From assembly GCF_000237325.1 (NCBI RefSeq), contig NC_017542.1:4064501-4128500 (forward strand): a DNA stretch of 64,000 nucleotides, written 5' to 3'. Source of the stretch: Paenibacillus polymyxa M1. GTDB taxonomy: Bacteria > Bacillota > Bacilli > Paenibacillales > Paenibacillaceae. Of this stretch, positions 32,313-63,471 are shown piece by piece. A program made the translations under genes and the position numbers. The notes below the pieces were generated by a model that saw only the letters and a list, made by a program, of their open reading frames with translations, made no database searches and had not been told where the DNA came from. The number at the start of each line of letters is the position of its first letter. Positions within the stretch are counted from its first letter, which is position 1.

Positions 32313-32425
32313 ACATATAACAATCTGTATTCATGATGTCCCAGCGCTTTAGGACTAATAGTCCGTCTGTTACTTGCGGCAGTTAAGCGGTTGATGTATC
32401 TGTTGAATTGCTTCCCCGCAATAGC
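32313..32425 (-). repeat. attC-like site 1 (degenerate, one end missing)
   Basis: The left box CATATAACAATCTGTATTCATGA and the interior CCAGCGCTTTAGG...CTTGCGGCAGTTAAGCGG match the long-type site at 59,011-59,193. The right conserved end is lost. Confidence 0.6.
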
Positions 32426-33048
32426 TATCCAATATTTTGAACAACTACATATCTTAATTCATATTCTTGTTGTTTTTCTGTATATGTCAGACATTCTCTT
32501 ATGGAACCCATTTCTAATATATTCAAATTATTAAAATGTTCTATTAAATTTTCTTCAGTAAAGAAGTGAGCATATTTCCCTTTCTTGTATTCATATGTTC
32601 CTTCCTCAACGTTCCTACCCACACCATTATTAAAATCGCTATCAGAAAAACACGTAAAATACATCACTCCCTGTTCCTTCAAATGCATCACACAATTCTG
32701 TATCAGTTTTTTTCGGTCTTCTAACAAAAATAAATGTAATAAATCATAACAATATATGCCGTCATACCTTTTGCTTGTACGAAACTCTAACACCGATTCT
32801 TGAATAAAATTCGTTTTTAAATCCCATTCTTTTGCTAGATTTATAGCTGAACTAGATATCTCAATTCCATCAACCTCAAAATAAGAAGAGAACATCTTGG
32901 TATTTCTCCCATACCCAGCACCAGGAACCAAAATATGATGTGCATTATTCTTTTTGAACAAATCTATAGCTTGGGTTACAGTTTGACTTGGTTCACAACC
33001 CCAAATCATTCCTTCTTCAGCAAACCTTTTGTTCCAATAATCTCTCAT
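32425..33048 (-). CDS. Class I SAM-dependent methyltransferase
   Basis: A 207-aa methyltransferase. Motif I is VPGAGYGRNTKMF (about 40-52), the acidic residue after beta-2 is in VDGIEISSSAI, and motif IV is YDGIYCYDLLHLF. It starts NKRFAEEGMIWGCEPS, like tellurite-resistance TehB/thiopurine-type small methyltransferases. AGGTGAA precedes the ATG. Substrate unknown. Confidence 0.85.
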   Translation of the reverse strand: MRDYWNKRFAEEGMIWGCEPSQTVTQAIDLFKKNNAHHILVPGAGYGRNTKMFSSYFEVDGIEISSSAINLAKEWDLKTNFIQESVLEFRTSKRYDGIYCYDLLHLFLLEDRKKLIQNCVMHLKEQGVMYFTCFSDSDFNNGVGRNVEEGTYEYKKGKYAHFFTEENLIEHFNNLNILEMGSIRECLTYTEKQQEYELRYVVVQNIG

Positions 33049-33070
33049 ATTATTTCACCTGCCTATATAC

Positions 33071-33526
33071 TCACATAGCTCTTCTTTTAAGCTCATCAAT
33101 CTGTCTTATATGATGTTGATCATGCCAGATAAAATCTCTTAGATAAGATATTACAGTAAACTTCCCGTCAGCATATTCTTTAGTAAACTTATCATCTTCC
33201 AAACTCTCTATACTCTGCAATATCATGTTACGGTACTGAATAGTCATTTCAATTAATTCTTCCTTCGTTTTTGTTTTCCCATATTCAACAGCACCCTGAT
33301 TAAATTGATTAAAATCAATATGTGTTAATGTCACAGGCGTATTGTTTAATATCGGATGTATGGCTGCTTCAAAAAAATATTTATCCCACAGCAATATATG
33401 ACTTACGATATCGTGAACTGACCATTTATCTTCGGCAATCTTTATTTGCCAATCCATTTCACGAATCTCAGAAACAAAACGTATCCATTCCTTGAACTCC
33501 TCTAGTAACTGCGACTTCTCATTCAT
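33071..33526 (-). CDS. DinB/DUF664-like four-helix metal protein
   Basis: A 151-aa DinB-superfamily protein. The three metal-ligand His are in DIVSHILLWDKYF (about 41) and IWHDQHHIRQIDEL (about 135-140). The superfamily includes thiol transferases and damage-inducible proteins; this member's role is unknown. AGAGGGG precedes the ATG. Confidence 0.83.
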   Translation of the reverse strand: MNEKSQLLEEFKEWIRFVSEIREMDWQIKIAEDKWSVHDIVSHILLWDKYFFEAAIHPILNNTPVTLTHIDFNQFNQGAVEYGKTKTKEELIEMTIQYRNMILQSIESLEDDKFTKEYADGKFTVISYLRDFIWHDQHHIRQIDELKRRAM

Positions 33527-33530
33527 GGTT

Positions 33531-33908
33531 TCAGACCCCTCTTTTCAGATTTGAGTTAGTTAGAATAATGTATTTGTATTCATGAACCCCAAAAGTGGGG
33601 TTTGCTAAAAATTTTTTTATGAATTTTCCCGTTTCTTTAAGCACAATTCCTAGCTTCAATCTAAGATCCTCAACCCTCACTCCCTCCTCGACACGTCTCA
33701 AAAATTGATTATTTTCAGGTATCTCATAATTTTTCAACCAGTCGAGTCTAACTTCTTTTTCAACATTCCTGCCTGGTAAAAATTCATAAATCCCCGGTCG
33801 CCATGTGAGTTCATGTATTTTATCTAAATCTTCTAAAAGATATTCCCGAAGGATAATGTCTTTACATTCTATAGACAGGCTATACGTGGAATCCTCTTCA
33901 GAGTGCAT
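33531..33908 (-). pseudogene. Truncated GNAT acetyltransferase fused into an attC-like remnant
   Basis: The 125-aa frame begins like a GNAT enzyme (LSIECKDIILREYLLEDLDKI, then ...LGIVLKETGKFI, the beta-strand before the acetyl-CoA motif). The acetyl-CoA-binding half is missing. The last 25 or so residues are a translation of the attC-like remnant at 33,553-33,602. Start ATG with AAAGGAGAG is intact. The catalytic motif A is absent, so it cannot be an active acetyltransferase. Confidence 0.7.
33553..33602 (-). repeat. attC-like site 2 (half site inside an ORF 3' end)
   Basis: GTTAGAATAATGTATTTGTATTCATGAACCCC... is the left end of a short-type site with its AACCCCAAAAGTGGGG hairpin. It is read through by the truncated GNAT frame. 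Confidence 0.65.
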
Positions 33909-33957
33909 GTTGACTCTCCTTTGATTGTATTGGTACTACAATGGATTCGCACTGCTT

Positions 33958-34083
33958 TCCTATAATGTTTCTGTGTTCGCGAGATCTGCCGCTAATCGGA
34001 TGTGTCTGGCTAAATCCATTCCCCAAAATTCCTCTGTCAGACTGAGGGCGTTAGCCTGATGTGTGAAACTTTTATTAGATGAC
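33958..34083 (-). repeat. attC-like site 3 (degenerate)
   Basis: Left end CCTATAATGTTTCTGTGTTCGCGA, right end GTGTGAAACTTTTATTAGATGA; both boxes are mutated but still complementary in part. Confidence 0.65.
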
Positions 34084-34108
34084 TCCTTCCAGACTTCATT
34101 GTACTGAC

Positions 34109-34840
34109 TTACACTAATTTCTTAGCTACAAAGGTTATACAATCCATTGATAGTTTCACGAGTTGTTTATTTCTTTCAATTTCATATTCCAGTTGCTTTA
34201 CTAATCGTTTTTTAACTTCCCATCCAATGTAGTGATGTCTTAATAATTCCATCATACTTTCAGTCGAGATATTTACTTCAAACATTGGCTCTAATTGTTG
34301 TGCATCCTTCATTCTCATCTCTTTTATATTCGTTCCAACAACAATGCAATTGGTTCCATTTATTTTTGTTCCTGTAGTCATTTCTTCAATTTTTAATTCC
34401 ATTTCCCTTTCCGATCTTACATGCTCCAAAGCAGATACAGCTATTATAATGTCATACTCATCTTGTTTAATATTGAAGTTTTCAATATCAGATAATTTTG
34501 TTTCAATAAATTGTTCGACACCATACTTTCTACTATAATTTTCCAATTTATCAATAGCAGACTTTAATAAATCCACGCAAACTACTTTTCCTTTTCTAAT
34601 CTTCATGGATTCAGCTATAGGAATACTATTTCTACCAATTCCAGCTCCTAAATCAAGCACCGATAGATTATCGTAATCTTTATATTCAGCTAGAAGGTCC
34701 AATACCGTTTGTACCGGTCTATGTAACCAAGAACCGGACTCAAACAAATTGTAATTGTCATAACAGAAATCATGATACTTCTTCTCTTCTAATCTTATAT
34801 TCTCTACCTTATCCAAGTTCTCACCACGAGCTTTCTGCAT
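34109..34840 (-). CDS. Class I SAM-dependent methyltransferase
   Basis: A 243-aa methyltransferase with motif I VLDLGAGIGRNSIPIA (about 59-74), acidic post-II loop VCVDLLKSAI and motif IV DIIIAVSALEHV. It resembles TehB-like methyltransferases. The ATG lies 6 bp from the next attC-like site, so its ribosome-binding region is within the site border. Substrate unknown. Confidence 0.85.
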   Translation of the reverse strand: MQKARGENLDKVENIRLEEKKYHDFCYDNYNLFESGSWLHRPVQTVLDLLAEYKDYDNLSVLDLGAGIGRNSIPIAESMKIRKGKVVCVDLLKSAIDKLENYSRKYGVEQFIETKLSDIENFNIKQDEYDIIIAVSALEHVRSEREMELKIEEMTTGTKINGTNCIVVGTNIKEMRMKDAQQLEPMFEVNISTESMMELLRHHYIGWEVKKRLVKQLEYEIERNKQLVKLSMDCITFVAKKLV

Positions 34841-34846
34841 GTTTTA

Positions 34847-34966
34847 TCTTTAACGTCTCTGTATTCACACGAACTCAAGGGTTGTCTGCTGAAAATCTCT
34901 CGCCGAAATCCATCTTGGAGACCTAGCTCCATAAGGAGCCGCAGACCAAATATTATGATATAAGAT
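34847..34966 (-). repeat. attC-like site 4
   Basis: Short type. Left TTTAACGTCTCTGTATTCACACGAA; interior GTCTGCTGAAA...; right AAATATTATGATATAAGATT. Confidence 0.75.
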
Positions 34967-35026
34967 TTTTGAGTCTAACATTCTAATGCCCATAATTAAC
35001 CATCTAAATAAAATGAATATTCTGTA

Positions 35027-35640
35027 CTAACCAAACCAGAAAATCACTCTTACATCTTCAGCATTCCCTAATTTCGATAATTTTGGAATTGTTTCATTGA
35101 TGAAACCCGAACATGTATCCATAATATTTCTATATTCCATAAATTGATCACAATAATAATTTTCATCCCATTTAAAATTAATTAAATCCTTCAATAATAG
35201 CCAACTGTGGTCATAAAAATCATCTTTATCCTCGAATGCAACTTCACTCAATTCAGGGGAGATATCCACCGGAAGACCTCTTGGCAAAGATAGAAACTTT
35301 AGATTATGATCATTCCTAGTATTCGATAGAATACTGAATAAATCATAGTTCCTATCGCCACTATAAAATTCATAAGGATCACTTGGTTTCAATTTAGCAG
35401 TCTTGTCTTCAGGATATAGATAGTAATCTGGGTTAACATTCCACTTATTGCACTTACCCAAATAGCAGTATCATTTAATTCTGCCTTACTCTTTTTAATT
35501 TTTCTCCAAGTACCATCAATCTGTTCATATTCGTCTCTGAAGTGCCTTTTCTCTACAAAAACCAAATATCTGTGCCCATATAACCTCCCAATTATGTTTT
35601 TTGAATACATCCTACTTTTAAAGTCTCTGTACTGTACCAA
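35027..35640 (-). pseudogene. Frameshifted hypothetical protein (two ORF halves)
   Basis: Two overlapping frames together resemble one phage/host hypothetical family: the N-terminal half (35389-35640, VFVEKRHFRDEYEQIDGTWRK...) and the C-terminal half (35027-35461, YDLFSILSNTRN, LSLPRGLPVDISPEL, HSWLLLKDLINF). The frame changes near 35,455-35,465 at a TTTGGG run. Either a real single-base indel or a sequencing error would explain it. The function of the family is unknown. Confidence 0.6.
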
Positions 35641-35854
35641 TAGAAATCTTCATATTAGGTGCATATACTAACCAAGATTTATCACTGAACTCTTCAGAAA
35701 AAGTTGCTTCTGCTTCATATTGTTTTTGAGCTTCCATTTCGTTTAATACTCTGGCCAATAAATTTTTGAGTACCTCTGAAATATCATTAGGTTCTTGTCC
35801 CAAGCCTTCTTCTTTCAAAGAACTATAAAGCATGTTTTTACTTTCCGAGTCCAT
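35618..35854 (-). CDS. Small acidic hypothetical protein
   Basis: 78 aa, rich in Glu/Leu and predicted helical. The start lies 3 nt after the stop of the upstream methyltransferase frame, suggesting coupling. No family recognised; may be a fragment, since it runs into the following frame. Confidence 0.45.
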   Translation of the reverse strand: MDSESKNMLYSSLKEEGLGQEPNDISEVLKNLLARVLNEMEAQKQYEAEATFSEEFSDKSWLVYAPNMKISIGTVQRL

Positions 35855-35857
35855 ATT

Positions 35858-36499
35858 CTAATCAAGAAAGTTCACCTTATCGCTAACCCTACACCCTATA
35901 TTTCTTAAGCCTAGCTGGCTTAGCATGATCGGTATTTGGATGCCTATATTTCCGTCTTTATCTGTACGCTTATGATCTCTCTCATATAACTCCTGTAGAA
36001 TACCTAACCGAATGACATTGCTTTGTTCAATTCCATCTAAATAATAATTCGCCATATTACCAATCCAGTGTGGTTCAAAACAGATAACCATCCCATTATC
36101 CTGAACACAATTAACCATCTTCTGTAGAATGCTCTTTGGATTAGGCATATGTAATAAAAAAGCATGACTGACTGCTATGTCATACTTCTTTTCTAATTCC
36201 ACTTTTTCAATATCACACTCTATAAATTCAGCATTATAAGAGAGTTTCGAAAATATTTCATTGGCTTGCTTTATTAATTCCATGCCTTTGTCAATGCCAG
36301 TATATGTTGATCCATTTGGTAGCAATGGAAGAAGCTTTAGTCCCAAATATCCAAATCGGCATCCATAATCTACGATCTCTACAGGTTTATTTATCTTCCA
36401 CACCTTTTGTATAAGAAATTCCAAATAATCATCGTTATAGTACAACCAGCGGGTATTTCGTAGGTAATCAATTTTATTGTCCCAATAATATTCAGACAT
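35858..36499 (-). CDS. SAM-dependent methyltransferase, possibly C-terminally truncated
   Basis: About 213 aa. Motif I VEIVDYGCRFGYLGLKLLPLL, acidic YTGIDKGMEL and motif IV IAVSHAFLLHMPNP are clear. Start ATG 36499 with CTAGGGGGA upstream. The C-terminus (SDKVNFLD) stops after the substrate domain begins, so it may be shortened relative to full-length relatives. Substrate unknown. Confidence 0.82.
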   Translation of the reverse strand: MSEYYWDNKIDYLRNTRWLYYNDDYLEFLIQKVWKINKPVEIVDYGCRFGYLGLKLLPLLPNGSTYTGIDKGMELIKQANEIFSKLSYNAEFIECDIEKVELEKKYDIAVSHAFLLHMPNPKSILQKMVNCVQDNGMVICFEPHWIGNMANYYLDGIEQSNVIRLGILQELYERDHKRTDKDGNIGIQIPIMLSQLGLRNIGCRVSDKVNFLD

Positions 36500-36547
36500 A
36501 AAAATCCCCCTAGTTATTTTATTACGTCGCTTCTCCGACAACTTGCT

Positions 36548-36811
36548 CTAATGACTAAATTCCTTTCTAATCATGTCCTTCTTCTCATCTATTATTTCCT
36601 TTAACTTAATAGCCTCTTTTTCTGTTATTTCTCCATTTTTTCTTTCAGCTTCTATTTCTTCTTTAATATCCTCTAATAAGGCTCTTGTCTGATATAACCT
36701 CAATCCAGTCCATTCAGAAATAAAAAAATCATCCTCTACCGTACCATCTAGATTGAAAATCATCCTATAATAACCTATATGACTTGTTCTATATTCGATT
36801 CTAATTTTCAC
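36548..36811 (-). CDS. Hypothetical protein, 87 aa
   Basis: Begins with a beta hairpin (RIEYRTSHIGYYRMIFNLDG) and ends in charged helices rich in Glu/Lys. No family recognised. No cassette site was found between it and its neighbours on either side, so 36.5-37.05 kb may be one multi-gene cassette. Confidence 0.55.
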   Translation of the reverse strand: MKIRIEYRTSHIGYYRMIFNLDGTVEDDFFISEWTGLRLYQTRALLEDIKEEIEAERKNGEITEKEAIKLKEIIDEKKDMIRKEFSH

Positions 36812-36847
36812 TTCAACATACTCAAGATCTCTATTGCTTGGGTCTAA

Positions 36848-37045
36848 TTATTCCAAACTCTTGATATGTAAGGAAAAATCCTCTATTAAAATCTTTAAAT
36901 AATCTTTATCATAGTCCCAAAACAACTCATCAAATTGCTCAGGCTCCTCGAGCTTGTAGGTATTTAAATTAAGCCAAAAAGCTTCTAATGCCCGGTTTCT
37001 TATATTGTGTTTGTCTACCCAATCTCTTAGTTTTTTTACATCCAT
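36848..37045 (-). CDS. Hypothetical protein, about 65 aa
   Basis: Small soluble acidic protein (DVKKLRDWVDKHNIRNRALEA...). I favour ATG 37045 with GGGGTGAT upstream over the GTG at 37057. No family recognised. Confidence 0.55.
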   Translation of the reverse strand: MDVKKLRDWVDKHNIRNRALEAFWLNLNTYKLEEPEQFDELFWDYDKDYLKILIEDFSLHIKSLE

Positions 37046-37080
37046 AAGATCCATCACCCCATAAAGTATTTTGTCGTATT

Positions 37081-37162
37081 TCTGATAATGTTTCTGTGGC
37101 CATAACGCCCGACGCCTTCGTAGACCAAGGAAGCGAAAGCGACCACAGTGTGAATTACTTAA
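37081..37162 (-). repeat. attC-like site 5 (compact, degenerate)
   Basis: Left TCTGATAATGTTTCTGTGGCCA, right CAGTGTGAATTACTTAATTC; only 82 bp. Confidence 0.65.
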
Positions 37163-37174
37163 TTCAATTTCCCT

Positions 37175-37600
37175 TTAGGGCTCTACTCGAACTAATACCT
37201 CTTCCATAGTCATTTCTGGAGTTATAATTATCGTTTTGTTTAGTTTTCGACTTAGGTCTTTTAGAAGATTCATGAGTACATCTATTTTTTTCTCTGAGTC
37301 TATCTGTATTGGTGAAATATCAAATTCAATAACACTTCCTTCATACAAATACCCACAAATATCAATTTCATTATATTCAATAGTTACCCCAATACTTGCT
37401 TCTCTTTTAATTCTTAACAATTCAGCAATATCTCTAATTTTAGTTATTAACCCATCTATAGTCACTCGATAATTAATTTCATTGCTTTCCAAATACTCAA
37501 AAATTATAGCCCATATTTGGATGTCTGTATCCAATATATAAATGTCCCTTAGACTTCCATCTTTAAAGAATACTTCATTCGCTACTTCATCGTAATTCAT
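37175..37600 (-). CDS. Hypothetical protein, 141 aa
   Basis: Soluble alpha/beta protein; strong GGAGGTTTGC ribosome site. Size and composition resemble immunity-type or uncharacterised cassette proteins, but no family motif is seen. Confidence 0.65.
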   Translation of the reverse strand: MNYDEVANEVFFKDGSLRDIYILDTDIQIWAIIFEYLESNEINYRVTIDGLITKIRDIAELLRIKREASIGVTIEYNEIDICGYLYEGSVIEFDISPIQIDSEKKIDVLMNLLKDLSRKLNKTIIITPEMTMEEVLVRVEP

Positions 37601-37623
37601 GCAAACCTCCTAACACTCCGCGT

Positions 37624-37660
37624 TTCACCTAACGTTCTTGTATTTCACGAGTCCTCACTA
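37624..37660 (-). repeat. attC-like site 6 (left half only)
   Basis: CACCTAACGTTCTTGTATTTCACGAGTCC; the remainder of the site is lost. Confidence 0.7.
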
Positions 37661-37671
37661 TCTATTTGCTT

Positions 37672-38295
37672 CTAATCTTCGTTCATTCTATCTGCTCGTA
37701 TCCAACTCATTTCCTCAATGTTTAATAATTCTTTAAACTCTTCTACTAATTGATGCTCAGATTCTAATTGTGTATAATAATTATTATTCAAAATATCGTC
37801 TAATTGTTTTATTTGTTCATTATCCAGTTCAAAAAATCTAAATGTTTTTAGATTGCAATTTGTAAACTGTTTTGCTATTTTCTCATTGTATTCATTAGAT
37901 CTCAGAACTTCTTCAATTAATTCAATTCTGATTTTGTCCCCTCTAGGGTCTACATATAAAAATTCAATGTGATCTTCCTCTGGATATCTTTCTTCTGCAA
38001 GCTTAATAATTGAAGTATCTAATAAAACATATGATATATGAAGACTTGCTATCTCTTGTAAATTGTAAACTACACGGTATCCCCAACAGTGATCTTCAAA
38101 ATTATAAAAATATAACACTGGGATTTTTCCTGAAATTTGAAATAGGCTTTCCGGAATTTCTTCACTTTCTTCTGTATCTTTGGTTATAAAAACAAACCAT
38201 TTGTCATTTAAATCCTCCGCGTATACAGGATCATGCTCAAGAATTGCCTCTTTATATTTCAATAGTGATAAACTTCCTGAAGTCAATTCACTCAT
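37672..38295 (-). CDS. Hypothetical protein, 207 aa
   Basis: Acidic soluble protein; AAAAAGGAG precedes the ATG. No family recognised. It may be co-transcribed with 38325-38909, 29 nt upstream. Confidence 0.65.
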   Translation of the reverse strand: MSELTSGSLSLLKYKEAILEHDPVYAEDLNDKWFVFITKDTEESEEIPESLFQISGKIPVLYFYNFEDHCWGYRVVYNLQEIASLHISYVLLDTSIIKLAEERYPEEDHIEFLYVDPRGDKIRIELIEEVLRSNEYNEKIAKQFTNCNLKTFRFFELDNEQIKQLDDILNNNYYTQLESEHQLVEEFKELLNIEEMSWIRADRMNED

Positions 38296-38324
38296 TGTTT
38301 TGGCTCCTTTTTAGTCATATCTCA

Positions 38325-38909
38325 CTAATACTCTTCAAATTTATATTTTGTTAATTTATTTAATTCGATCACTTGTTCTTGATTAAAATAGCCCACTAGG
38401 CAGCCTTGATCTAAAATTGAAATATACAATTTCATGGATTGTTCAGTCTGTGTTAACTCATTAAATTTCTTGAATATCTCCATATCCAACCAATCATCAT
38501 CTACTTTCATTTCCCATCTTGTAAGTTCATTCTCATATTCAAAGGAGGCCCATGCAGTACTATTCTGAATATCTACGTAATCCGTTATCTTATTTAAATT
38601 AAGTTTTGTCATATTTTTTAACCGCATTATTACTCTTGCATAGTCTCCATGGTCCTCAATACATTCAGCATCCAAATACCAAATTTCATCAGATACATTT
38701 ATAAATTCACCATTGACTTCAACTTCTCCACCTAAAGTAAGTAGTAGCAAGTTGTAGGGATCTTCTTCATATTCAATTCTTGAAGTTTCTTCTAAAAATA
38801 ATTCTTTTTTTAAATCTAATCTCATGAAGATGCCCAATTCAGAAAGTTGGTTTAGTTGAACTTCAAATATTGTTTTCTTTTTCTTAAATAAACCAAACAA
38901 CTTAAACAC
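38325..38909 (-). CDS. Hypothetical protein, about 194 aa
   Basis: Basic N-terminus (FKLFGLFKKKK), then an acidic mixed alpha/beta chain with many aromatic residues. GTG start at 38909. No family recognised. The 38,910-39,070 gap upstream shows nothing. Confidence 0.6.
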   Translation of the reverse strand: MFKLFGLFKKKKTIFEVQLNQLSELGIFMRLDLKKELFLEETSRIEYEEDPYNLLLLTLGGEVEVNGEFINVSDEIWYLDAECIEDHGDYARVIMRLKNMTKLNLNKITDYVDIQNSTAWASFEYENELTRWEMKVDDDWLDMEIFKKFNELTQTEQSMKLYISILDQGCLVGYFNQEQVIELNKLTKYKFEEY

Positions 38910-39070
38910 CTTCTTTTTATAATTTGCATCCCTTTCCTATAACAATACTCCCAAGATGTTGATTCTATATATTCTTTATTATACTTTTTTCGTATTATTC
39001 AATTCGATCTGTTGCATGCAACTCATTATTAAAACTATCAATAAAGAAATTATAACTTCCCATTTCAATA

Positions 39071-39358
39071 TTAATAATGTTTCTGAATCAGGATACAATA
39101 TACTTTGAGAGGATAGTCCCCAATTCTGTAGTTTAGGGCATGTGATAGTAATGTTGAAATTGATATTAATATCCAGTTCTCTATAAAGTAATAATTGTTA
39201 TGATCTTTATTGAACCAACCATTAATAACTACTAAACAAAAAGGAATAATTATGGTTGTTCCCATTGCAGAAAAGAAAGTAACAATCCACAATTCTTCAA
39301 AAACATTTATCAACATCCAAATAGGTAACAAAGTTAGATGAAATATAACTATTGGCAA
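39071..39358 (-). CDS. Small membrane protein
   Basis: 95 aa from a TTG start with three predicted membrane helices. The same frame stays open upstream to a possible ATT/ATA start with GAGGGA, so about 20 more residues may belong to it or its original ATG may have mutated. Function unknown. Confidence 0.45.
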   Translation of the reverse strand: MPIVIFHLTLLPIWMLINVFEELWIVTFFSAMGTTIIIPFCLVVINGWFNKDHNNYYFIENWILISISTLLSHALNYRIGDYPLKVYCILIQKHY

Positions 39359-39449
39359 TATGTTAATGGTAAAAAGGTTTCTTCGTATTATTGCAATTAG
39401 TTTTGTAATTTCTATCCCTCTTTCTATTGTTTTTTGAGGACTAGAGATT

Positions 39450-55935: not shown

Positions 55936-55965
55936 AAGATCAACTCCAATTTAGTATTTAGGTGA

Positions 55966-56228: not shown

Positions 56229-57590
56229 TTACTCGTCAATTTCATTTAATAATTCTTTTTCAATTTCCTTTTCAAGCAAAAAATATCTTCTAATTTCATC
56301 CCAGCAATCCGAAAAGATTTCTTGAATCTCTACTTCCTCTACATTGTAATCACTAGAATCTGTATATATTTTAAGTTCATCGTTAGCAACGTCGAATTCA
56401 GAATCAAATATTGTATCACCCATTGGGTGTAGGCCTGAAATTTTCAAGGATAGCCCCAGAGAAACAGTTATTTCTCTCGTTTTGTCATCTTCGTAAAGAA
56501 ATGCACTAATGTTGAATTTATCATCACTTCTCTCAAATATAACTTCTTCCTCCCACTCGTACTCCATTAGAAAATCCATAATTTCTTCTAATATCTTTCT
56601 TATTTCATTCTTAAGCTTACTAATCCTTATACAATACGCCTCTACATCTATTTCTTTCAATCCTTCATAATCATACATTAGAAAATGTCTTCCATCATTC
56701 TCGAGACCTCTAAGATAAGCAATTATCAAGTCATTTTCAAAATCAATAATAAGTCTTTCAGGAATAAATATAGAATCAATATAATTATTACTTCCTTCAG
56801 AACTAGCTCCTGAAACTTCAAAAATAATAAATGTATTTGAGCTAGAGACTTCGGCCCATGGTTTTTGAGTTCCTCTTATGTCTGTACTAGATTTAATATA
56901 ATCCGGAACTATTTTGCTTAAATAATTCTGCAATGATGTGCTAGTAATAAATCGTTCACGTTCAACTGCTTCGGGGGCTTCTCCATTTAATGCCTTTATC
57001 AGAAAATGTGTCCATATTCCATGTCCTAGTTCTGGACTACCGTATGATTTCTCTCCACGTGAACATGACAGAAACATAGCTCTATAATTGCTTGATCGCA
57101 CAAAATCGCTAAACTCTTTGGTATTCATATCAGCAATAAAATCTCTGCTAACTAATTGCTCATCAATATAACTCGCACATGCATCTATAAATATCAAACA
57201 TTGATTACATCTTGAGTTTCTTAGTGGCTCCATTAATATTCGGTTTAGTGAAACAGTAGTTTCTTGTATATTATTGGGGTGAGTGTCCCACGTTGTTATT
57301 TTGTTATATCCTCCATCATAAAATCCATGACCAGCATAATAGAAAATAAATCGATCACTTTCAGTAAGATTTGATATCTCATATTGAAGTTCTTCATTAA
57401 GCGCGGATTTTGTCGCATCAACATCAAGCCAAAGCTTAATATTTTCTTGAGGTACTTTAAGATTATTTATAAGCCATTGTTGAAATGCTATTGCATCATT
57501 CCTCGCATAATCAACTGTCTTGATTCTAAATTGATAATTTTCCACTGCTATTATTACTGCGAATGTATTCCCATGAAATCCTGAATTCAT
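56229..57590 (-). CDS. Caspase-family (C14) peptidase
   Basis: About 453 aa from ATG 57590. Peptidase C14 domain at 1-240: VIIAVENYQF, catalytic His88 in YYAGHGFYD and Cys138 in IFIDACASY; LSCSRGEKSYGSPELGHGIWT is the loop after the dyad. The C-terminal half (about 250-453) is acidic alpha/beta and unrecognised. Bacterial caspases act in abortive-infection defence, usually cutting a partner effector; no such partner is in this cassette. No signal peptide. Confidence 0.85.
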   Translation of the reverse strand: MNSGFHGNTFAVIIAVENYQFRIKTVDYARNDAIAFQQWLINNLKVPQENIKLWLDVDATKSALNEELQYEISNLTESDRFIFYYAGHGFYDGGYNKITTWDTHPNNIQETTVSLNRILMEPLRNSRCNQCLIFIDACASYIDEQLVSRDFIADMNTKEFSDFVRSSNYRAMFLSCSRGEKSYGSPELGHGIWTHFLIKALNGEAPEAVERERFITSTSLQNYLSKIVPDYIKSSTDIRGTQKPWAEVSSSNTFIIFEVSGASSEGSNNYIDSIFIPERLIIDFENDLIIAYLRGLENDGRHFLMYDYEGLKEIDVEAYCIRISKLKNEIRKILEEIMDFLMEYEWEEEVIFERSDDKFNISAFLYEDDKTREITVSLGLSLKISGLHPMGDTIFDSEFDVANDELKIYTDSSDYNVEEVEIQEIFSDCWDEIRRYFLLEKEIEKELLNEIDE

Positions 57591-57617
57591 AAAACACCAC
57601 CCATGAATCTGTATAAT

Positions 57618-57641
57618 TTCTTCGAGCAACAGGACGTTGCG
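57618..57641 (-). repeat. Cassette 5' flank motif (copy 2)
   Basis: TTCTTCGAGCAACA plus GGACGTTGCG, matching 40,345-40,368, upstream of the caspase ATG. Confidence 0.5.
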
Positions 57642-57675
57642 AATATAATACTTTCACTCTCTCTGGGGCAGATCT

Positions 57676-57845
57676 TTCAGATAACGTTCTTGTATTCACG
57701 AACCCTCACTGGCTTAAGGAGCGAACGCGCCGGGTCCGACGGACTTAGCCAGTGCAGGGTTGTCCGGCTGCTTCCACTCCCCCAAAAATGTCTCTGCCGG
57801 ACCGAGGGCCGAATGGCCCGATGCGTGAATATTTTGTTATCTGAT
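57676..57845 (-). repeat. attC-like site 24 (long type, reference copy)
   Basis: TTCAGATAACGTTCTTGTATTCACGAACCC; first hairpin CTCACTGGCTTAAGG...CTTAGCCAGTGCAGGG; second GTCCGGCTG...TGCCGGAC with GGGCCGAATGGCCC; right GCGTGAATATTTTGTTATCTGATG. The outer CAGATAAC/GTTATCTG and TATTCACG/CGTGAATA arms are perfectly complementary. Confidence 0.9.
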
Positions 57846-57861
57846 GCCAATGCCTTCTTGA

Positions 57862-58278
57862 TTAACTTTCAAATGTTGCTTTGACTCGTTTTGAGTTTTT
57901 AAAATACAAAATCCATATTGATCCAAAAATAATTGTAGAGATTAAACTTGGGAGTTCATCTATTTTGTTAATTGTGAGAATGAAGTTTAAAAATCCAAAT
58001 ATTATAGTGATTATTTCAATTTGAATTATTATATTTGGTCCTTTCCTTTTCTTCTTCAATATAAGCACTAGAGAAACAATAATTAAGACTTCAGAAAATA
58101 AATATATTCCGACAGAAATAGTTCTAGCAAGATTCCAACCAATTGTTCCAACTAACATATAAATATAAAATTCGAAATAAAGATCTATTAAATTACTTAT
58201 AAGTAGATAAAAAGAATAGATCACAAAGAAAAGCAGCCAGCCTTTAATTCCACTCATACTATTCTGAGATAATTGCAT
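57862..58278 (-). CDS. DUF2569-family membrane protein
   Basis: 138 aa with four membrane helices. SGIKGWLLFFVIY at the start and WILYFKNSKRVKATF at the end are the DUF2569 signatures. Function unknown. AAGGAGCC precedes the ATG. Confidence 0.8.
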   Translation of the reverse strand: MQLSQNSMSGIKGWLLFFVIYSFYLLISNLIDLYFEFYIYMLVGTIGWNLARTISVGIYLFSEVLIIVSLVLILKKKRKGPNIIIQIEIITIIFGFLNFILTINKIDELPSLISTIIFGSIWILYFKNSKRVKATFES

Positions 58279-58323
58279 TATTGGCTCCTTAATTTTTGTC
58301 TTTTATTTGCATTGAGCATTGGT

Positions 58324-58495
58324 TTCAGATAACGTTGTTGTATTCACGACGCCCCACCACCTTAAAGGAACGAGGTGACTGGCCGCAGTGCGGTTGGGTG
58401 GTGGGGGTGTGTTCGCCTGAATCCACTTTCAGCTTTGCCTCATCGGGCGAACCGAGGGCCGAAGGGCCCGAAGCGTGAATATTTTGTTATCTGAA
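58324..58495 (-). repeat. attC-like site 25 (long type)
   Basis: TTCAGATAACGTTGTTGTATTCACGACGCC; CCACCACCTTAAAGG...GGTGGTGGG hairpin; GGGCCGAAGGGCCC; right GCGTGAATATTTTGTTATCTGAAG. Confidence 0.88.
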
Positions 58496-58525
58496 GGATC
58501 GGTCTGCTTGAACTACTATCAATAA

Positions 58526-58960
58526 CTATTCAACTTTTACTTCAGCAATAAAGAAATTCTCTCCAGGTATTGAATCTCCAGCCATTCTTCTTATCATTGA
58601 CAATTGACCAACATGTGTCATTGCATCTGATAATGGTCCTTGAATCAGTTTTTCGATAATTCTATCTTTGTTTGGTATTCCATTTGATTTCATTAAATTG
58701 TCTAAGTTATGCAGCTCATTAAAAAATGTCTGTACTTCGTCATTCCAGTTTCCTGATTCTTTCTTAAGTTGTACTTGGTTATCAAAAACGGATTGGGCAT
58801 ATCTTATGACATCAGACATGTGTGCCAAAATTTCAATTGGAGTTCTTACACCGTTACCGAGCTCATAATTCGGGTAATTACTTGGAGCATTTAGAATTGC
58901 TTTTGAACATCGATACCTGAGAGACGAGAGGTAATGTCTTAAAAAGTAAATTTCATCCAT
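58526..58960 (-). CDS. DinB-like four-helix protein
   Basis: 144 aa. EILAHMSDVIRYA and DAMTHVGQLSMIRRMAG supply the two His of the DinB fold; the third ligand is less clear. Thiol-transferase or unknown role. AAGGGGGA precedes the ATG. Confidence 0.8.
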   Translation of the reverse strand: MDEIYFLRHYLSSLRYRCSKAILNAPSNYPNYELGNGVRTPIEILAHMSDVIRYAQSVFDNQVQLKKESGNWNDEVQTFFNELHNLDNLMKSNGIPNKDRIIEKLIQGPLSDAMTHVGQLSMIRRMAGDSIPGENFFIAEVKVE

Positions 58961-59010
58961 TTTTATTATCCCCCTTTTCTAATTCTTCTCTTTTTAAAGG
59001 TCTACCGATC

Positions 59011-59193
59011 TTTCATATAACGTTCCCGTATTCACGACGTCTCAGCGCCTTAAGGCCCGTATAGGGCCGGCTGCCGCTTGCGGCAGTTAGGCGGTGGGAT
59101 GTGTCCGGTGAATTCACTCCCCCGAAATGCCTCTTCCGGACCAAGTGGCGGACTTGACCCGCCACGCAGCGTTGAATGCGATGTTAACAGATG
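59011..59193 (-). repeat. attC-like site 26 (long type)
   Basis: TTTCATATAACGTTCCCGTATTCACGACG; hairpin AGCGCCTTAAGGC...GGCGGTGGG; GGCGGACTTGACCCGCC; right GCGTTGAATGCGATGTTAACAGATG. Confidence 0.88.
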
Positions 59194-59235
59194 TCCACGA
59201 CCTCTTCGAATTACATACGATAAATCTTTATATAT

Positions 59236-59841
59236 TCATTTCTTTAATATGTAATCAATAAATCCTTGTCGTATTTTTTTGCCCTCATAGATTCTTTCCA
59301 AAACTCGATCTTCTTTATAGATTAATTTCATATCATCAAACATCGCATCAGCTTCATTGTAATCATAATACGAATGGATAACTGGCTCATTATCTTCAAT
59401 CTGTTCATATTGGTTATCTCCTAAATCAACACCTTCTCCAACCCGAAAATCCTTAACGGTTAGGAAATTCACAAATAATACTCCATTGGGTTTCAATACC
59501 CGTTTCATTTCATTGATTGATTGTTTCACATCTTCTTTTCTCATATGAAACACCGAGTTATATGAATACACAAAACTAATCGACTCGTCACTAAATGATA
59601 AAGATCTCATATCACCATGTTGTATATTTAAATTCTGTCCTCTCATTTCTGCAAATCGATTCGCTTTTTGAAACTGTTCAACATTCATTTCTATTCCAAT
59701 AGTTTTGTATCCATAATGGACAAATAGACTTAATGGAGGGGAATCACCTCCCGCCCCGCAGTCCAATACCGTTCTTTCCATACCGCTTTCATTACATAAA
59801 GCTAAAAATCTATACAGTGGTACTTGTCTGAAAAGCTCCAC
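59236..59841 (-). CDS. Class I SAM-dependent methyltransferase
   Basis: 201 aa, GTG start with AAGGAGA. Motif I VLDCGAGGDSPPLSLF, acidic TIGIEMNVEQF, motif IV ISFVYSYNSVFHM, then MKRVLKPNGVLFVNFL. Substrate unknown. Confidence 0.87.
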   Translation of the reverse strand: MELFRQVPLYRFLALCNESGMERTVLDCGAGGDSPPLSLFVHYGYKTIGIEMNVEQFQKANRFAEMRGQNLNIQHGDMRSLSFSDESISFVYSYNSVFHMRKEDVKQSINEMKRVLKPNGVLFVNFLTVKDFRVGEGVDLGDNQYEQIEDNEPVIHSYYDYNEADAMFDDMKLIYKEDRVLERIYEGKKIRQGFIDYILKK

Positions 59842-59890
59842 AACAATCGTCTCCTTCGTCTTTTGGTTTTATAGTTTTATTGTTTCGTGG

Positions 59891-60021
59891 ATTTCTGCTA
59901 ACGTTTCTGTATTCACGACACCCAGCGAATGCTGGGTGTGTCCGACTGTTCCTGCCTCCCAGAAACCCCTCAGCCGGACCGAGGGCGCATGCCCGCAGCG
60001 TGAATATTATGTTAAGTTGAA
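59891..60021 (-). repeat. attC-like site 27
   Basis: TTTCTGCTAACGTTTCTGTATTCACGACACCC; CCCAGCGAATGCTGGGTG hairpin; right GCGTGAATATTATGTTAAGTTGAAG. Confidence 0.88.
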
Positions 60022-60046
60022 GTTACCGACCTCTTTGAAATTCTAT

Positions 60047-60540
60047 CTAGGTCCTTATTATCTTTACATATGTCCTTACTGAATCAGACTCAGCCTCAAT
60101 ATTTTTATCATTTGTTTTATTTTCAATTATTTGTAGCCCATTAAAACATGCGTTTTCTTTGTACCATTCAATTAATTCAAATAGTGGTATACTTTGTTCT
60201 ACCACACTCGTATCTTCATAGTAAGAAGCTAATGTAATTATAAATGTCGGCGCCAGAGCGTCGGCACTTAAGTAAAATACAAATTCCTTATCTGTATAAT
60301 GCTTTTTAAGATATAACTCTACTTCTTTCTCAAGAAAAGAAAACGCTTCTAATAATTTATCTGATGGTACTCTTCCATCTTTATAAGCCTATTAAATCCA
60401 TGAATATAAATAAAATTATGACTTTCTTCAATGCCAATTAGCTTAGGATCATTTGAAAATAAAAAAACTGGCGAAGTTATTATTTTAGTGATTTCTCGGT
60501 ATGCCTTCTAAGCGTGTTTTTTTAAGTAATCTAGAATCAA
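60047..60540 (-). pseudogene. Decayed hypothetical cassette gene
   Basis: From TTG 60540 (GAGAGGG upstream) the minus strand reads LILDYLKKHA, TAG, KAYREITKIITSPVFLFSND...NFIYIHGFNR, then changes frame near 60,390 to YKDGRVPSDKLLEAFSFLEKEVEL... and continues open to TAG 60047. One nonsense codon and one indel in otherwise good coding sequence. Family not recognised. Confidence 0.6.
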
Positions 60541-60562
60541 GTTCTTACCCTCTCTTGGTAAT

Positions 60563-60737
60563 TTCACTTAACGTTCAGGCATTCACGAACCCTCACTGCC
60601 TTAAGCGACCAACGGGAGCGGCCGCGATGCGGTTAGGCAGTGCAGGGTTGTCCGCCTGTTAATCTTCCCTGAAAATCCTCGGGCGGACCAAGAGGCGCGA
60701 CAGCGACCCGCAGCGTGAATGTTTTGTTATCGGATGT
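60563..60737 (-). repeat. attC-like site 28 (long type)
   Basis: TTTCACTTAACGTTCAGGCATTCACGAACCC; CTCACTGCCTTAAGCG...TTAGGCAGTGCAGGG; right GCGTGAATGTTTTGTTATCGGATG. Confidence 0.88.
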
Positions 60738-60796
60738 CAATACCTTCCTCGAACCTCTAAAAATCTTGGAGTCAGTTTCGCTTTTGTTTTTATATC

Positions 60797-61609
60797 TTAT
60801 AGTTTTCTTGCCTTTATCACAAAAGTTACTGGAAGCATTTTTGCTCTCTTTGCCATATCGCTGTTATCATCCCGCAATTGCATAAACTCATAATCACATT
60901 CCTCAATCATTAGCTCAATTACAAACCCAGCTTTTGCAAGCGCGTTTACATAAGTTGACAGCATACGGTCCGCTAACAATAGCTCACCTTCATCAACTGC
61001 CACCGGATACCAACCTTCATTAAAGTAACTCTTATTAATTACAAACCTATCATTTTCTGTAGTAACCCATCTGTGTATAGGGTGAGACCAACTGAAAATA
61101 AATAGCCCGTCTTTTTTAAGGTAAGAAGATATTCGTCGAAAGGTACCCTCAAGATCGGTGGTCCAACCTATGGCATAAATTGAATAAACATAGTCAAAAT
61201 AATCCGTTGGGATGCCGCATTCTTCTTCCATGGGAGAACATATCAATTTTGCTGCTATTCCACATGACTTCAAATGTTGCGCTGCCTTTTCAATTTGTCT
61301 TTCTGAAATATCCACAGCCCATAGTTCAGATGCGTTTCGTTCCCCTTGATATTGCAAGGATTGACCATTTCCGCAGCCGATCTCCAGCAGTTTTTTTCCT
61401 GAGATATCACCAAAGAGCTGGCAATTTTCTTCTGAGATAAATGCTCCATAATAAGGGAGCACGATTGCTTTTAAGAAGTCATTGCCTTTGGTATCCCAAT
61501 ATAGGCTGTTTGTTTTATGAACAACATTCTTTTTTAAGTCTTCCGAGCTGCCGACACCATTTTCCCCGTCAACAATAATGCTTCTTCTATTTAATGAATT
61601 CTTGTCCAT
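60797..61609 (-). CDS. Class I SAM-dependent methyltransferase
   Basis: 270 aa from ATG 61609 (AGAGAAGGTG upstream). Motif I LLEIGCGNGQSLQYQG, acidic LWAVDISERQI, motif IV FDYVYSIYAIGWTTDL, SSYLKKDGLFIFSWSHP. Resembles ubiquinone/menaquinone-type small-molecule methyltransferases. Substrate unknown. Confidence 0.87.
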   Translation of the reverse strand: MDKNSLNRRSIIVDGENGVGSSEDLKKNVVHKTNSLYWDTKGNDFLKAIVLPYYGAFISEENCQLFGDISGKKLLEIGCGNGQSLQYQGERNASELWAVDISERQIEKAAQHLKSCGIAAKLICSPMEEECGIPTDYFDYVYSIYAIGWTTDLEGTFRRISSYLKKDGLFIFSWSHPIHRWVTTENDRFVINKSYFNEGWYPVAVDEGELLLADRMLSTYVNALAKAGFVIELMIEECDYEFMQLRDDNSDMAKRAKMLPVTFVIKARKL

Positions 61610-61664
61610 GAAGGCACCTTCTCTTAGTAGATATTTATATTTGAGCATTTCAGATTTGCATTAA

Positions 61665-61831
61665 TTTCTGATAACGTTTGTGTATCTACGAACCCTCACC
61701 ACCTTAAGGACCGTAGGTCCGGCCGCGATGCGGTTAGGTGGTGCAGGGTTGTCTGGTGAATAGGCTTCCTCAAAATCCCTCTTGCAGACCAAGGCCGTCA
61801 GGACGCAGCGTATATACGATGTTAACTAATG
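61665..61831 (-). repeat. attC-like site 29 (long type)
   Basis: TTTCTGATAACGTTTGTGTATCTACGAACCC; CTCACCACCTTAAGG...TTAGGTGGTGCAGGG; right GCGTATATACGATGTTAACTAATG. The next gene's stop lies within its edge. Confidence 0.87.
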
Positions 61832-62481
61832 TTCCGGCCTCCTTCGAAATAATCAATACTCTGGTCTTTAAATAGTTCTTTCAATTCCCTTGATGTTTCA
61901 CTAACAAAGATCTTAATAATTTCTGCTTTAAAATAGATAGGTGCTATATGAGGTTCATTCTTTAGATCTTGCAGCCATCTCACCTTATTATCCCTATACT
62001 GATTGACTTCAAGCTGCGTAATGTAAGGATTTATTGTATATCCCTTAGCTTTTAAGAGTTTTGTAAACAGTTTTTCAGTACTTCCCATTGATCTTAAGAG
62101 ATCAAATTCTACTTGGCTAACTTCAAGGTTATATGTCTTTCTAACATCATTCTTTTCGCCTCTGTAGTTTTTCTCAAAATCGAAATAGACGGTATCTGTC
62201 CACCTTAAATCTGTATAAATATGTGAAAAGTAACCTATAACAAAGTCCTTCCATTCTGGCCCCGCTTGCTTCAGTAAATATTCCTTGCACTTCTCCATGA
62301 TCAATTCCTTGGCTGGTAATTTATCGTTATGTACGAGATGAGTCACACCTTTTTCTTCCCTGGATACCTTCCCTCTCATATGAATCGCATCCGGAGCAAT
62401 ACTGCCTAATAAAAAATTGGGTGAGGGGTCATTAATAGAAAGGTTTTCTGAAATTGCAAAGTGTACCATAGGCCAAGGCAA
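61822..62481 (-). CDS. Zinc-dependent phospholipase C-like family protein
   Basis: 219 aa. PWPMVHFAISEN, FLLGSIAPDAIHMR, THLVHNDK and FVIGYFSHIYTDLRW give the ordered His/Asp ligands of the Zn_dep_PLPC fold. No signal peptide, so intracellular; hydrolase of unknown substrate. TTG 62481 is chosen because AAAGGAGGA is ideally spaced. Confidence 0.8.
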   Translation of the reverse strand: MPWPMVHFAISENLSINDPSPNFLLGSIAPDAIHMRGKVSREEKGVTHLVHNDKLPAKELIMEKCKEYLLKQAGPEWKDFVIGYFSHIYTDLRWTDTVYFDFEKNYRGEKNDVRKTYNLEVSQVEFDLLRSMGSTEKLFTKLLKAKGYTINPYITQLEVNQYRDNKVRWLQDLKNEPHIAPIYFKAEIIKIFVSETSRELKELFKDQSIDYFEGGRNIS

Positions 62482-62526
62482 ATTAATTCCTCCTTTGATA
62501 TTTCCTTCAATCATGAACTTGTCGGA

Positions 62527-62650
62527 ATTTCAGTTAACGTTCCTGTATTCATGACCCCCGAAGGGGTTGTCTGCTGAAATGCTTCCCTGAAATCTTCTCG
62601 CAGACCAAGGCTCCAAAGGAGCCGCTGCTTGAATATTATGTTATATGACG
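62527..62650 (-). repeat. attC-like site 30
   Basis: ATTTCAGTTAACGTTCCTGTATTCATGACCCCC; CCCGAAGGGG; GGCTCCAAAGGAGCC; right GCTTGAATATTATGTTATATGACG. Short type, well conserved. Confidence 0.88.
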
Positions 62651-62664
62651 GAATCGCTTCTTCA

Positions 62665-62889
62665 CTACTGGTTTTCTTCGGGTACATACTCAATTAAATC
62701 TGATAATTTGCAGTTAAATGTATCGCATAGCTTGAATAAAGTTTCCAGCTTTGTTGTTTCTATATTCGTTTCCCTATACAACTTGTTGATTGAATTCCGA
62801 CTTAAGCCCGATTTCGCCATCAATTCTGTTATATCATCTATTCGATGTTCTGCCATGAGTTCTCGTATATTGCACTTGATTACGTTCAT
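62665..62889 (-). CDS. XRE-family Cro/CI-like HTH protein
   Basis: 74 aa, one helix-turn-helix domain (ITELMAKSGLSRNSINKLYRE, about 20-40) of the Cro/CI type that makes up nearly the whole protein. AGGGGAAAAG precedes the ATG. Divergent from 63043, with a palindromic operator between, suggesting autoregulation and control of that gene. Confidence 0.87.
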   Translation of the reverse strand: MNVIKCNIRELMAEHRIDDITELMAKSGLSRNSINKLYRETNIETTKLETLFKLCDTFNCKLSDLIEYVPEENQ

Positions 62890-63008
62890 CTTTTCCCCTC
62901 CATAATTCTATCTTATCTCCCATACCAGCAATCATCAACGAAAAGCGAAGTTTTAACTCTATAACGTCAAATATTCACCTTGCAATTAACTTTATAAGGT
63001 TATATAAT

Positions 63009-63022
63009 AACTCTGTAGAGTT
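63009..63022. promoter_or_regulatory. Probable operator of the XRE/63043 pair
   Basis: AACTCT-GT-AGAGTT, a 6-2-6 palindrome, with a further AACTCT at 62,955-62,960, close to the start of the plus-strand gene. Confidence 0.6.
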
Positions 63023-63042
63023 AATTAGAGGAGGAATAACAT

Positions 63043-63453
63043 ATGATTAATACATTAGAATCATTAACAGAGCCGCTTATAAGAATACGTTTAGAATTAC
63101 TCTATACTGAGCTTCTGGAGTGTCATAAGGAGTACACTCAGCTTTCTTCGGAGACATATCAATATTTTAAAACGCTTCGTGATGCTTTGCCCGATCAACT
63201 TCAACATACGGTTTTTCTTTACGAAGACGCCCAAATTTCTCTACAATCCATCCTAGAAAGAAGTATCTACATACAAGGTTTCAAAGATGCTCTACAACTA
63301 TTTAGTGAATTGAAAATTCTAGTATTTAGAGGGTCATATGACCCTCTTTTTCTATTGTTCTTGATTCTGTCGTATAACGTTCTTGTATTCATGACCCAGC
63401 GCATGCTGGGTGTCCGGCGACTGCCGGAGCGAGGACGAATGTCCGATGCATGA
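63043..63453 (+). CDS. Small helical protein (DUF6809-like), 3' end runs into a terminator and attC
   Basis: Helical protein with EDAQISLQSILERSIYIQGFKDALQLFSEL near residue 80-110 (given in parts), reminiscent of DUF6809 phage-type small proteins. AGAGGAGGAAT precedes the ATG. No stop occurs before the terminator at 63,328, so the last 35 or so codons are translations of the terminator and attC-like site; the native 3' end was probably lost. One of two plus-strand genes in the array. Confidence 0.6.
   Translation: MINTLESLTEPLIRIRLELLYTELLECHKEYTQLSSETYQYFKTLRDALPDQLQHTVFLYEDAQISLQSILERSIYIQGFKDALQLFSELKILVFRGSYDPLFLLFLILSYNVLVFMTQRMLGVRRLPERGRMSDA
63328..63352 (+). terminator. Terminator inside the 63043 ORF 3' end
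   Basis: AGAGGGTCATATGACCCTCT perfect palindrome plus five T. Confidence 0.8.
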
Positions 63454-63471
63454 ATATTATGTTATCTGCTG
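63369..63471 (-). repeat. attC-like site 31 (compact)
   Basis: TGTCGTATAACGTTCTTGTATTCATGACCC; CCAGCGCATGCTGGG; TCCGGCGACTGCCGGA; right GATGCATGAATATTATGTTATCTGCTG; 103 bp. Confidence 0.88.

What the first reader, a model, noticed from the sequence alone, without database searches (positions are those of the whole stretch)
32313..63471. Chromosomal integron-like cassette array in a Gram-positive genome
Seen: about 31 copies of a palindromic repeat, nearly all followed on the minus strand by a single unrelated small gene, in constant polarity over 31 kb. Known: this one-gene-one-site layout, with complementary outer boxes and variable self-complementary centres, defines integron cassettes and attC sites. 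Complete integrons are classically described in Gram-negative groups, and I know of no well-established one in Paenibacillus. Inferred: a large sedentary array or CALIN-like array in a Bacillota chromosome, possibly undescribed.
Basis: partly seen in the sequence, partly recalled or inferred. Interest (0 to 1): 0.95.

Follow-up and report, generated by a model that had tools for sequence, protein, structure and literature searches.

The report
A second kind of integron
A Paenibacillus chromosome carries a long row of mostly single genes, each ending in a foldable DNA tag; the row was likely assembled by an enzyme that is a cousin of the integron integrase but lacks its defining part, and relatives in other phyla carry the same tag code, so this would be a second, overlooked gene-capture system.

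Summary
The repeats are sites of an integron-type cassette array that runs past the window's right end to an attI-like site and a broken tyrosine-recombinase gene (L022:5732-6169, minus). Gene plus downstream site is the unit. The start of each cassette, after a constant G^TT point, pairs with the end of the same cassette, not with the site it abuts (18 cassettes, 0 of 20,000 permutations). Related species share segments ending at these points: 31 of 101 within 30 nt at both ends in both genomes. attI is 96% identical before the point and 37% after.

The recombinase is not IntI. Intact relatives miss the IntI cut-off, lack the IntI-specific insertion, and form a clade sister to IntI (98/97). 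Their N-terminal domain weakly resembles HARP/UvsW/XPB domains, which read branched DNA (function recalled).

Its cassettes carry a second pairing block (positions 11-15) behind a fixed A.C mismatch at position 10. One classical Vibrio array, the only control with enough cassettes, lacks both. Using this grammar alone, 121 hits appear in 37 of 79 family loci from several phyla (controls 2 and 1).

Recombination is untested; here the recombinase is a pseudogene.

The parts
33566..64000 (-). Part of the cassette array inside the window. It continues 5.7 kb beyond the right end (L022:1-5690, = window coordinates to about 69690).
   Evidence: site scan; leftmost site with at least one strong arm ends at 33566
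63375..63464 (-). attC-like site, 90 nt class (R''/L'' - three hairpins - L'/R')
   Evidence: both arms strong; in alignment A6 with covariation
62535..62643 (-). attC-like site, 109 nt
61672..61824 (-). attC-like site, 153 nt
60569..60729 (-). attC-like site, 161 nt
59899..60014 (-). attC-like site, 116 nt
59018..59186 (-). attC-like site, 169 nt
58330..58489 (-). attC-like site, 160 nt
57682..57839 (-). attC-like site, 158 nt
55973..56135 (-). attC-like site, 163 nt
55174..55264 (-). attC-like site, 91 nt
54340..54449 (-). attC-like site, 110 nt
49950..50097 (-). attC-like site, 148 nt
48919..49035 (-). attC-like site, 117 nt
42994..43104 (-). attC-like site, 111 nt
34851..34960 (-). attC-like site, 110 nt, partly decayed
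   Evidence: arms 16.2 and 24.6 bits
33566..48275 (-). Left part of the array: mostly decayed or half sites (one strong arm: 48057-48275, 44316-44424, 42275-42387, 41517-41711, 33963-34077, 33566-33619; lone halves: 45790-45806, 43669-43685, 39456-39472, 35395-35411, 45515-45531, 40981-40997)
63488..63976 (-). cassette gene, 162 aa, no Pfam match
62665..62889 (-). cassette gene, HTH_26 regulator
   Evidence: Pfam PF13443
61822..62514 (-). cassette gene, weak Zn-dependent phospholipase C-like match (below cut-off)
   Evidence: PF00882 22.9 bits, cut-off 26.8
60797..61648 (-). cassette gene, methyltransferase
   Evidence: PF08241
59236..59841 (-). cassette gene, methyltransferase
   Evidence: PF08241
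56229..57629 (-). cassette gene, caspase-domain protein (candidate defence)
   Evidence: PF00656; 1 of the 43 proteins scanned matches the PADLOC caspase model
54497..54874 (-). cassette gene, aspartyl protease-like
   Evidence: PF13975
44462..45494 (-). two adjacent GNAT acetyltransferase genes
   Evidence: PF00583

Best explanation
This is a chromosomal integron-type cassette array, mostly single genes each followed by a folding recombination-like site and bounded at one constant point (G^TT), and it was likely built by a tyrosine recombinase of a clade sister to IntI that lacks the IntI-specific domain and has a predicted HARP-like domain instead. Shown: the unit is gene plus downstream site, bounded by G^TT; its two ends are complementary to each other; an attI-like site lies about 100 nt after the recombinase stop codon; each of the 10 genus recombinases that I followed has a co-oriented array directly downstream; species share cassettes with ends at these boundaries. 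Inferred mechanism: a cassette is excised as a circle. One DNA strand folds so that the R stem (8 bp, a mismatch at position 10, then about 5 bp) and the L stem (8 bp) form two recombinase-binding arms. The recombinase would cut at G^TT and insert the cassette at attI. The position-10 pair is A.C on the gene strand and G.T on the other, so the other (bottom) strand would make the better helix and be the likely substrate, as in classical integrons (recalled). The HARP-like domain would read the folded DNA, in place of IntI's patch III. In this strain the recombinase has lost about the first 230 of 378 profile positions and its catalytic tyrosine, so the array is likely frozen.
Confidence: 0.85

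Rival explanations
1. An ordinary integron cluster without integrase (CALIN): the cassettes were made and moved by a classical IntI elsewhere, and the neighbouring recombinase is a bystander.
For: The general cassette plan and the 8-nt own-end pairing are the same as in a classical Vibrio array. 23 of 25 genus genomes without the recombinase at the threshold have the motif.
Against: No IntI over the cut-off in this genome; 1 of 299 Bacillota species has one. In 24 of 36 loci with downstream hits the first cassette starts within 200 nt of the recombinase match. Site core GTTRRRY in only 50 of 188. Second block and A.C mark absent in the one IntI array tested.
Confidence: 0.08
2. Dispersed palindromic repeats (MITE- or REP-like) or RNA hairpins inserted between small genes, not recombination sites.
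For: The sites are palindromic, about 90-169 nt and intergenic.
Against: Shared segments are gene plus site and many end at G^TT. The end of each cassette pairs with its own start. Covariation shows no G.U bias on the gene strand (25 G.T against 40 A.C), which speaks for DNA rather than RNA.
Confidence: 0.02
3. A Xer/dif-type module system: double-stranded recombination by XerC/XerD-like enzymes at short sites, with the hairpins playing another role.
For: Intact relatives score over the NCBIfam XerA model cut-off (224.8 against 220).
Against: The clade groups with IntI apart from the Xer rows (99/83; few Xer rows). The conserved element is a long folded site with covarying stems, and the cassette ends are cassette-specific, which a dif-like double-strand site would not need (inference).
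Confidence: 0.05

Closest known systems
Chromosomal integron with IntI (e.g. Vibrio superintegron)
   Same: Mostly one gene per cassette, folding attC, attI beside the recombinase, G^TT point, own-end pairing of about 8 nt, one gene strand, shared cassettes with ends at boundaries.
   Different: The recombinase lacks the IntI-specific stretch and lies in a sister clade. It is transcribed in the array's direction. The cassette end has a second pairing block and a fixed A.C mismatch. The core is GTTA/G, not GTTRRRY. The 90-nt sites form three hairpins in a multiloop.
CALIN (attC cluster lacking IntI; PMC9024848, passages read)
   Same: attC-like cluster with no intact IntI, which is how IntI-based tools could file it (not run).
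   Different: A non-IntI recombinase and attI-like site are present; five close relatives have full-length open frames.
NCBIfam NF040815 XerA / 'site-specific tyrosine recombinase/integron integrase'
   Same: Intact relatives pass this model, and some bear that name in databases.
   Different: The name comes from the model. The tree puts the family beside IntI, and it has an extra N-terminal domain and cassette arrays.
Reverse integrons of Spirochaetota (orientation noted in PMC9668308 passages; details recalled)
   Same: Recombinase and cassettes point the same way.
   Different: Those have IntI with the IntI-specific domain (recalled).

Membership tests
Integron (IntI-defined) | IntI-specific additional domain around patch III | tested here: not met
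   IntIA residues 182-239 have no counterpart in the full-length relative; query 277-294 spans the gap
Integron (IntI-defined) | Passes the integron-integrase model TIGR02249 | tested here: not met
   207.7 and 209.3 bits in two full-length relatives, cut-off 265
Integron (IntI-defined) | Recombinase lies inside the IntI clade | tested here: not met
   IntI one clade 100/98, family sister 98/97, 63 proteins
Integron (IntI-defined) | attI beside the recombinase gene with a sharp insertion point | tested here: met
   96.4% identity before, 36.7% after the point, 15 pairs of 6 species
Integron (IntI-defined) | Cassette = gene plus attC, bounded at G^TT; the circle restores the R stem | tested here: met
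   sequence evidence only: 0 of 20,000 permutations
Integron (IntI-defined) | Core consensus RYYYAAC / GTTRRRY | tested here: not met
   50 of 188 cassette starts fit GTTRRRY
Integron (IntI-defined) | attC folds, pairs supported by covariation | tested here: met
   100 double changes against 33.9 shuffled, 0 of 500, 53 sites of 90 nt
Integron (IntI-defined) | Cassette gain and loss at site boundaries | tested here: met
   between species, not strains: 31 of 101 segments within 30 nt of a boundary at all four ends; left ends 41 against a null of 0.15
Integron (IntI-defined) | Recombination of the single-stranded bottom strand | not testable with these tools
   only the A.C/G.T polarity hint
Integron (IntI-defined) | Sites found by the standard attC covariance model | not tested
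   the IntegronFinder/HattCI models are not on hand
CALIN | attC cluster with no recombinase of its own | tested here: inconclusive
   In this strain only a broken recombinase remains; G018, G059, G060, G061 and G063 have full-length open frames, four of them checked to have arrays directly downstream
HARP domain (PF07443) | Passes the Pfam gathering score | tested here: not met
   best of 10 proteins 24.9 bits, cut-off 25; weak in five, none in four. PDB profile hit 4o66 E 0.0035 keeps it as a resemblance
XerA (NF040815) | Passes the model cut-off | tested here: met
   224.8 and 225.8 bits, cut-off 220
XerA (NF040815) | Resolves chromosome dimers at dif | not tested
   G000 has other Xer-like genes (L001, L002)

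The most novel reading that the evidence does not exclude
There is a second, IntI-independent class of integrons, spread over Bacillota, Bacteroidota and several other phyla including archaeal assemblies. Its recombinase reads folded cassette sites with an N-terminal HARP-like domain instead of patch III, and it reads cassette polarity from an invariant A.C/G.T mismatch between two pairing blocks. Cassette capture would then predate the IntI-specific domain.
Probability: 0.6. Interest if true: 0.96.

Novelty: new variant of a known kind. Interest (0 to 1): 0.93.

Why it matters
The archaeal integron survey read here identified integrases by the IntI-specific domain (PMC9668308, passages); a sister clade without it would be missed by that rule. 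Yet in an even sample of 299 Bacillota species the new family's profile hit 29 (this genome and a congener included; some hits cover only the C-terminal part), against 1 for IntI. It gives a testable route into two open questions: what patch III is for, and how integrons arose from Xer-like enzymes. It also names a store of cassette genes (43 ORFs scanned here, some with matches to defence models), and a simple sequence grammar by which more arrays can be found.

Tried and rejected
MITE/REP, RNA-element and dif-module readings: see rivals. The first covariance model (R1) took only 6 pairs from a gappy alignment and was not used further. Rfam gave 0 matches and ARAGORN 0. L107 (Clostridia assembly) gave no significant own-end pairing with motif-defined sites (3 cassettes, 19 of 33), though the grammar search lists hits there. 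In L141 a first regex with a wrong offset gave no signal; corrected, 45 of 66, 25 of 20,000. Viral contigs held no relative of the recombinase. Viral IntI loci proved unusable as a classical control (no array of 3 or more cassettes), and Thiodictyon gave 3 cassettes (one of the three pairs over 17 nt), so a Vibrio array was used. The grammar search found nothing in 38 loci around IntI relatives (645 kb), but few of those hold arrays, so this is a weak control. Without the A.C rule the two strands are mirror images (39/39 and 27/27); the strand result therefore rests on the A.C orientation, which was the same in all 66 forward perfect pairs. The whole-protein Foldseek search listed only recombinases in its 50 rows; the HARP resemblance rests on the N-terminal profile and on an N-terminal model of the Nitrospinae relative L103, not of the Paenibacillus protein.

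Literature: search listings. Passages read: PMC9024848, PMC8618304, PMC2426708, PMC8138268, PMC9668308, PMC8371274. No whole paper was read. Functions of HARP, UvsW and XPB domains, bottom-strand use and patch III beyond these passages are recalled.
Full report
WHAT IS THERE. The window lies at 4,064,501-4,128,500 of a 5.86-Mb contig of a genome held as G000. Its genus is Paenibacillus: the same-genus genome G018 has the contig length (77,498) of P. maysiensis NZ_ASRY01000292. On the minus strand the repeats read TAAC-ATAA-TATTCACG...CGTGAATA-CAGGAAC-GTTA. A low-threshold scan lists 33 sites in one polarity, 26 in the window: 15 with both arms strong, 6 with one, 5 weak and possibly chance, plus 6 lone halves. 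The array continues 5.7 kb beyond the window (L022). It ends at an attI-like site next to a 145-aa C-terminal piece of a tyrosine recombinase, on the same strand (L022:5732-6169).

CASSETTES ARE THE UNITS. If cassettes move as circles cut at G^TT, the start of a cassette must pair with the R'' of its own downstream site, not with the site it abuts. For the 18 cassettes from attI to window 54449, own pairing scores 165 of 216; 0 of 20,000 permutations reach it. Pairing with the abutting site is at chance (121; 15,855 of 20,000). In six species the 60 nt before the attI point are 96.4% identical and the 60 nt after are 36.7% identical (15 pairs). All-against-all BLASTN of 11 species' arrays gave 101 shared segments (at least 78% identity and 250 nt). 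Within -30/+20 nt of a cassette boundary in both genomes lie 41 left ends, 64 right ends, and both ends in 31; the other 70 do not fit at all four ends. Random placement gives a mean of 0.15 (maximum 2 in 2,000) for left ends. The 31 form 8 cassette families, and none of 8 pairs of shared cassettes is adjacent in both genomes.

THE SITES FOLD. 53 sites of exactly 90 nt from the genus and its relatives share a three-hairpin multiloop closed by an 8-bp L stem and the R stem. 96.1% of 1,537 cells are paired (28-38% when slid), with 100 double changes against 33.9 in shuffles, 0 of 500. Three sites of the array folded as DNA beat shuffles with z -2.2 to -5.1, on both strands alike. G.T pairs are not commoner on the gene strand than on the other (25 against 40). 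That speaks for DNA rather than RNA structure (inference).

A NEW MARK. Over 188 cassettes of 20 arrays (neighbouring sites over the threshold, 150-2,600 nt apart), own pairing is 0.78-1.00 at positions 1-8, 0.37 at 9, 0.06 at 10, 0.72-0.79 at 11-15, then falls off. Position 10 is A on the cassette start and C on its partner in 157 of 188, that is, A.C on the gene strand and G.T on the other. 23 Bacteroidota cassettes (L134, L139, L141) give a like profile, with A.C in 20. In a classical Vibrio array (11 cassettes, IntIA-type integrase) positions 4-8 pair (51 of 55, 0 of 5,000) but positions 11-15 do not (13 of 55; 2,888 of 5,000), and position 10 shows A.C in 1 of 11. The first block is therefore common to integrons; the second block and the mark are peculiar to this clade, as far as one control array can tell.

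THE RECOMBINASE. A full-length relative (379 aa, G061) matches VchIntIA best among solved structures, but the IntI-specific stretch is absent (query 277-294 against IntIA 182-239). Two full-length relatives miss TIGR02249 (207.7 and 209.3 of 265 bits) and pass the XerA model (224.8 and 225.8 of 220). In a tree of 63 proteins the family (37 rows) is one clade (98/97), sister to IntI (18 rows, 100/98), with the Xer rows outside (99/83). The Xer rows are few and some branches long. In G000 the profile matches only positions 231-376, and the invariant catalytic tyrosine (Y356) reads cysteine: it is a pseudogene.

SPREAD. The 3' half-site motif (at most one mismatch) occurs in 73 of 75 genus genomes; the control pattern gives 0 or 1 per strand. 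The recombinase at E<=1e-60 is in 50 of 75 (53 of 75 with the C-terminal piece at 1e-30). All 50 have the motif, but so do 23 of the other 25. I followed ten recombinases, chosen as such, and each has a co-oriented array directly downstream, with 4 to 35 sites. A search with the grammar alone (no motif) over 79 loci with family recombinases (the best 80 of 135) found 121 hits, a few sharing an end, in 37 loci, against 2 in reversed and 1 in shuffled sequence. 120 lie downstream of the recombinase and 1 upstream, and in 24 of 36 loci the first starts within 200 nt. Hosts include Clostridium, Pseudobacteroides, Lutispora, a Nitrospinae assembly and Bacteroidota. Assemblies of WOR-3 (L106), Thermoanaerobaculaceae (L111), Atribacteria (L117), Micrarchaeota (L115) and Altarchaeum (L116) have one hit each. 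The other 42 loci gave none. With the A.C rule lifted, all 66 perfect pairs still carry A.C in the forward sense. In an even sample of 299 Bacillota species the family profile hits 29, this genome and a congener included and some only in the C-terminal part; TIGR02249 hits 1. Of 29 loci from that sample with 1.5 kb of flank, 11 show a hit on the recombinase strand and 2 on the other.

CARGO. 43 ORFs of the array share no general likeness (mean column identity 7%). Of 30 ORFs sent to Pfam (29 of these and the plus-strand ORF), 12 have no match; the rest include methyltransferases, GNAT, NUDIX, HTH, a caspase and DUFs. PADLOC matches 17 models over the 43, among them mad2 (5 members), PDC-M08, PD-Lambda-3, PDC-S07, PDC-S31, PD-T4-6 and caspase. 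These are labels, not tests.

VERDICT. In the sequence tests of layout, boundaries, folding and exchange it behaves like an integron. It fails the IntI-based definition on four tested features: domain, model, clade and core consensus. I found no account of it in nine integron paper searches, which cover open-licence PMC papers only.

Noticed in passing
window 50097-54340: 4.2-kb interval without a detected internal site. It holds an AraC-type regulator with a Peripla_BP_2-like part, a FhuF-like reductase and a Peripla_BP_2 protein: a multi-gene cassette, or an insertion of a siderophore-type operon.
   Followed up: no
window 63043-63453 (+): A plus-strand ORF (DUF6809) inside a cassette, antisense to the rest of the array.
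   Followed up: no
L067 (G018), L068-L069 (G060), L073 (G063): An 8.1-kb block 97.7-98.5% identical between three species sits inside or beside their arrays, with ends that do not fit cassette boundaries: likely another mobile element.
   Followed up: no
L076, L075 (G007): One cassette is present twice in the same array (cassettes 18 and 23), and also in five other species.
   Followed up: partly
L251, L254: Two Bacillota loci with the recombinase profile have the cassette grammar on the opposite strand.
   Followed up: no
L161 / G196:C122: The only IntI over the TIGR02249 cut-off among 299 Bacillota species; its translation shows the IntI-specific stretch.
   Followed up: partly
genus-wide: Many family recombinase genes are truncated or interrupted, as in the window's genome, while arrays persist.
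   Followed up: no
L138, L148: Further Bacteroidota loci with other dispersed site-like repeats beside family recombinases; L138 also has grammar hits.
   Followed up: partly
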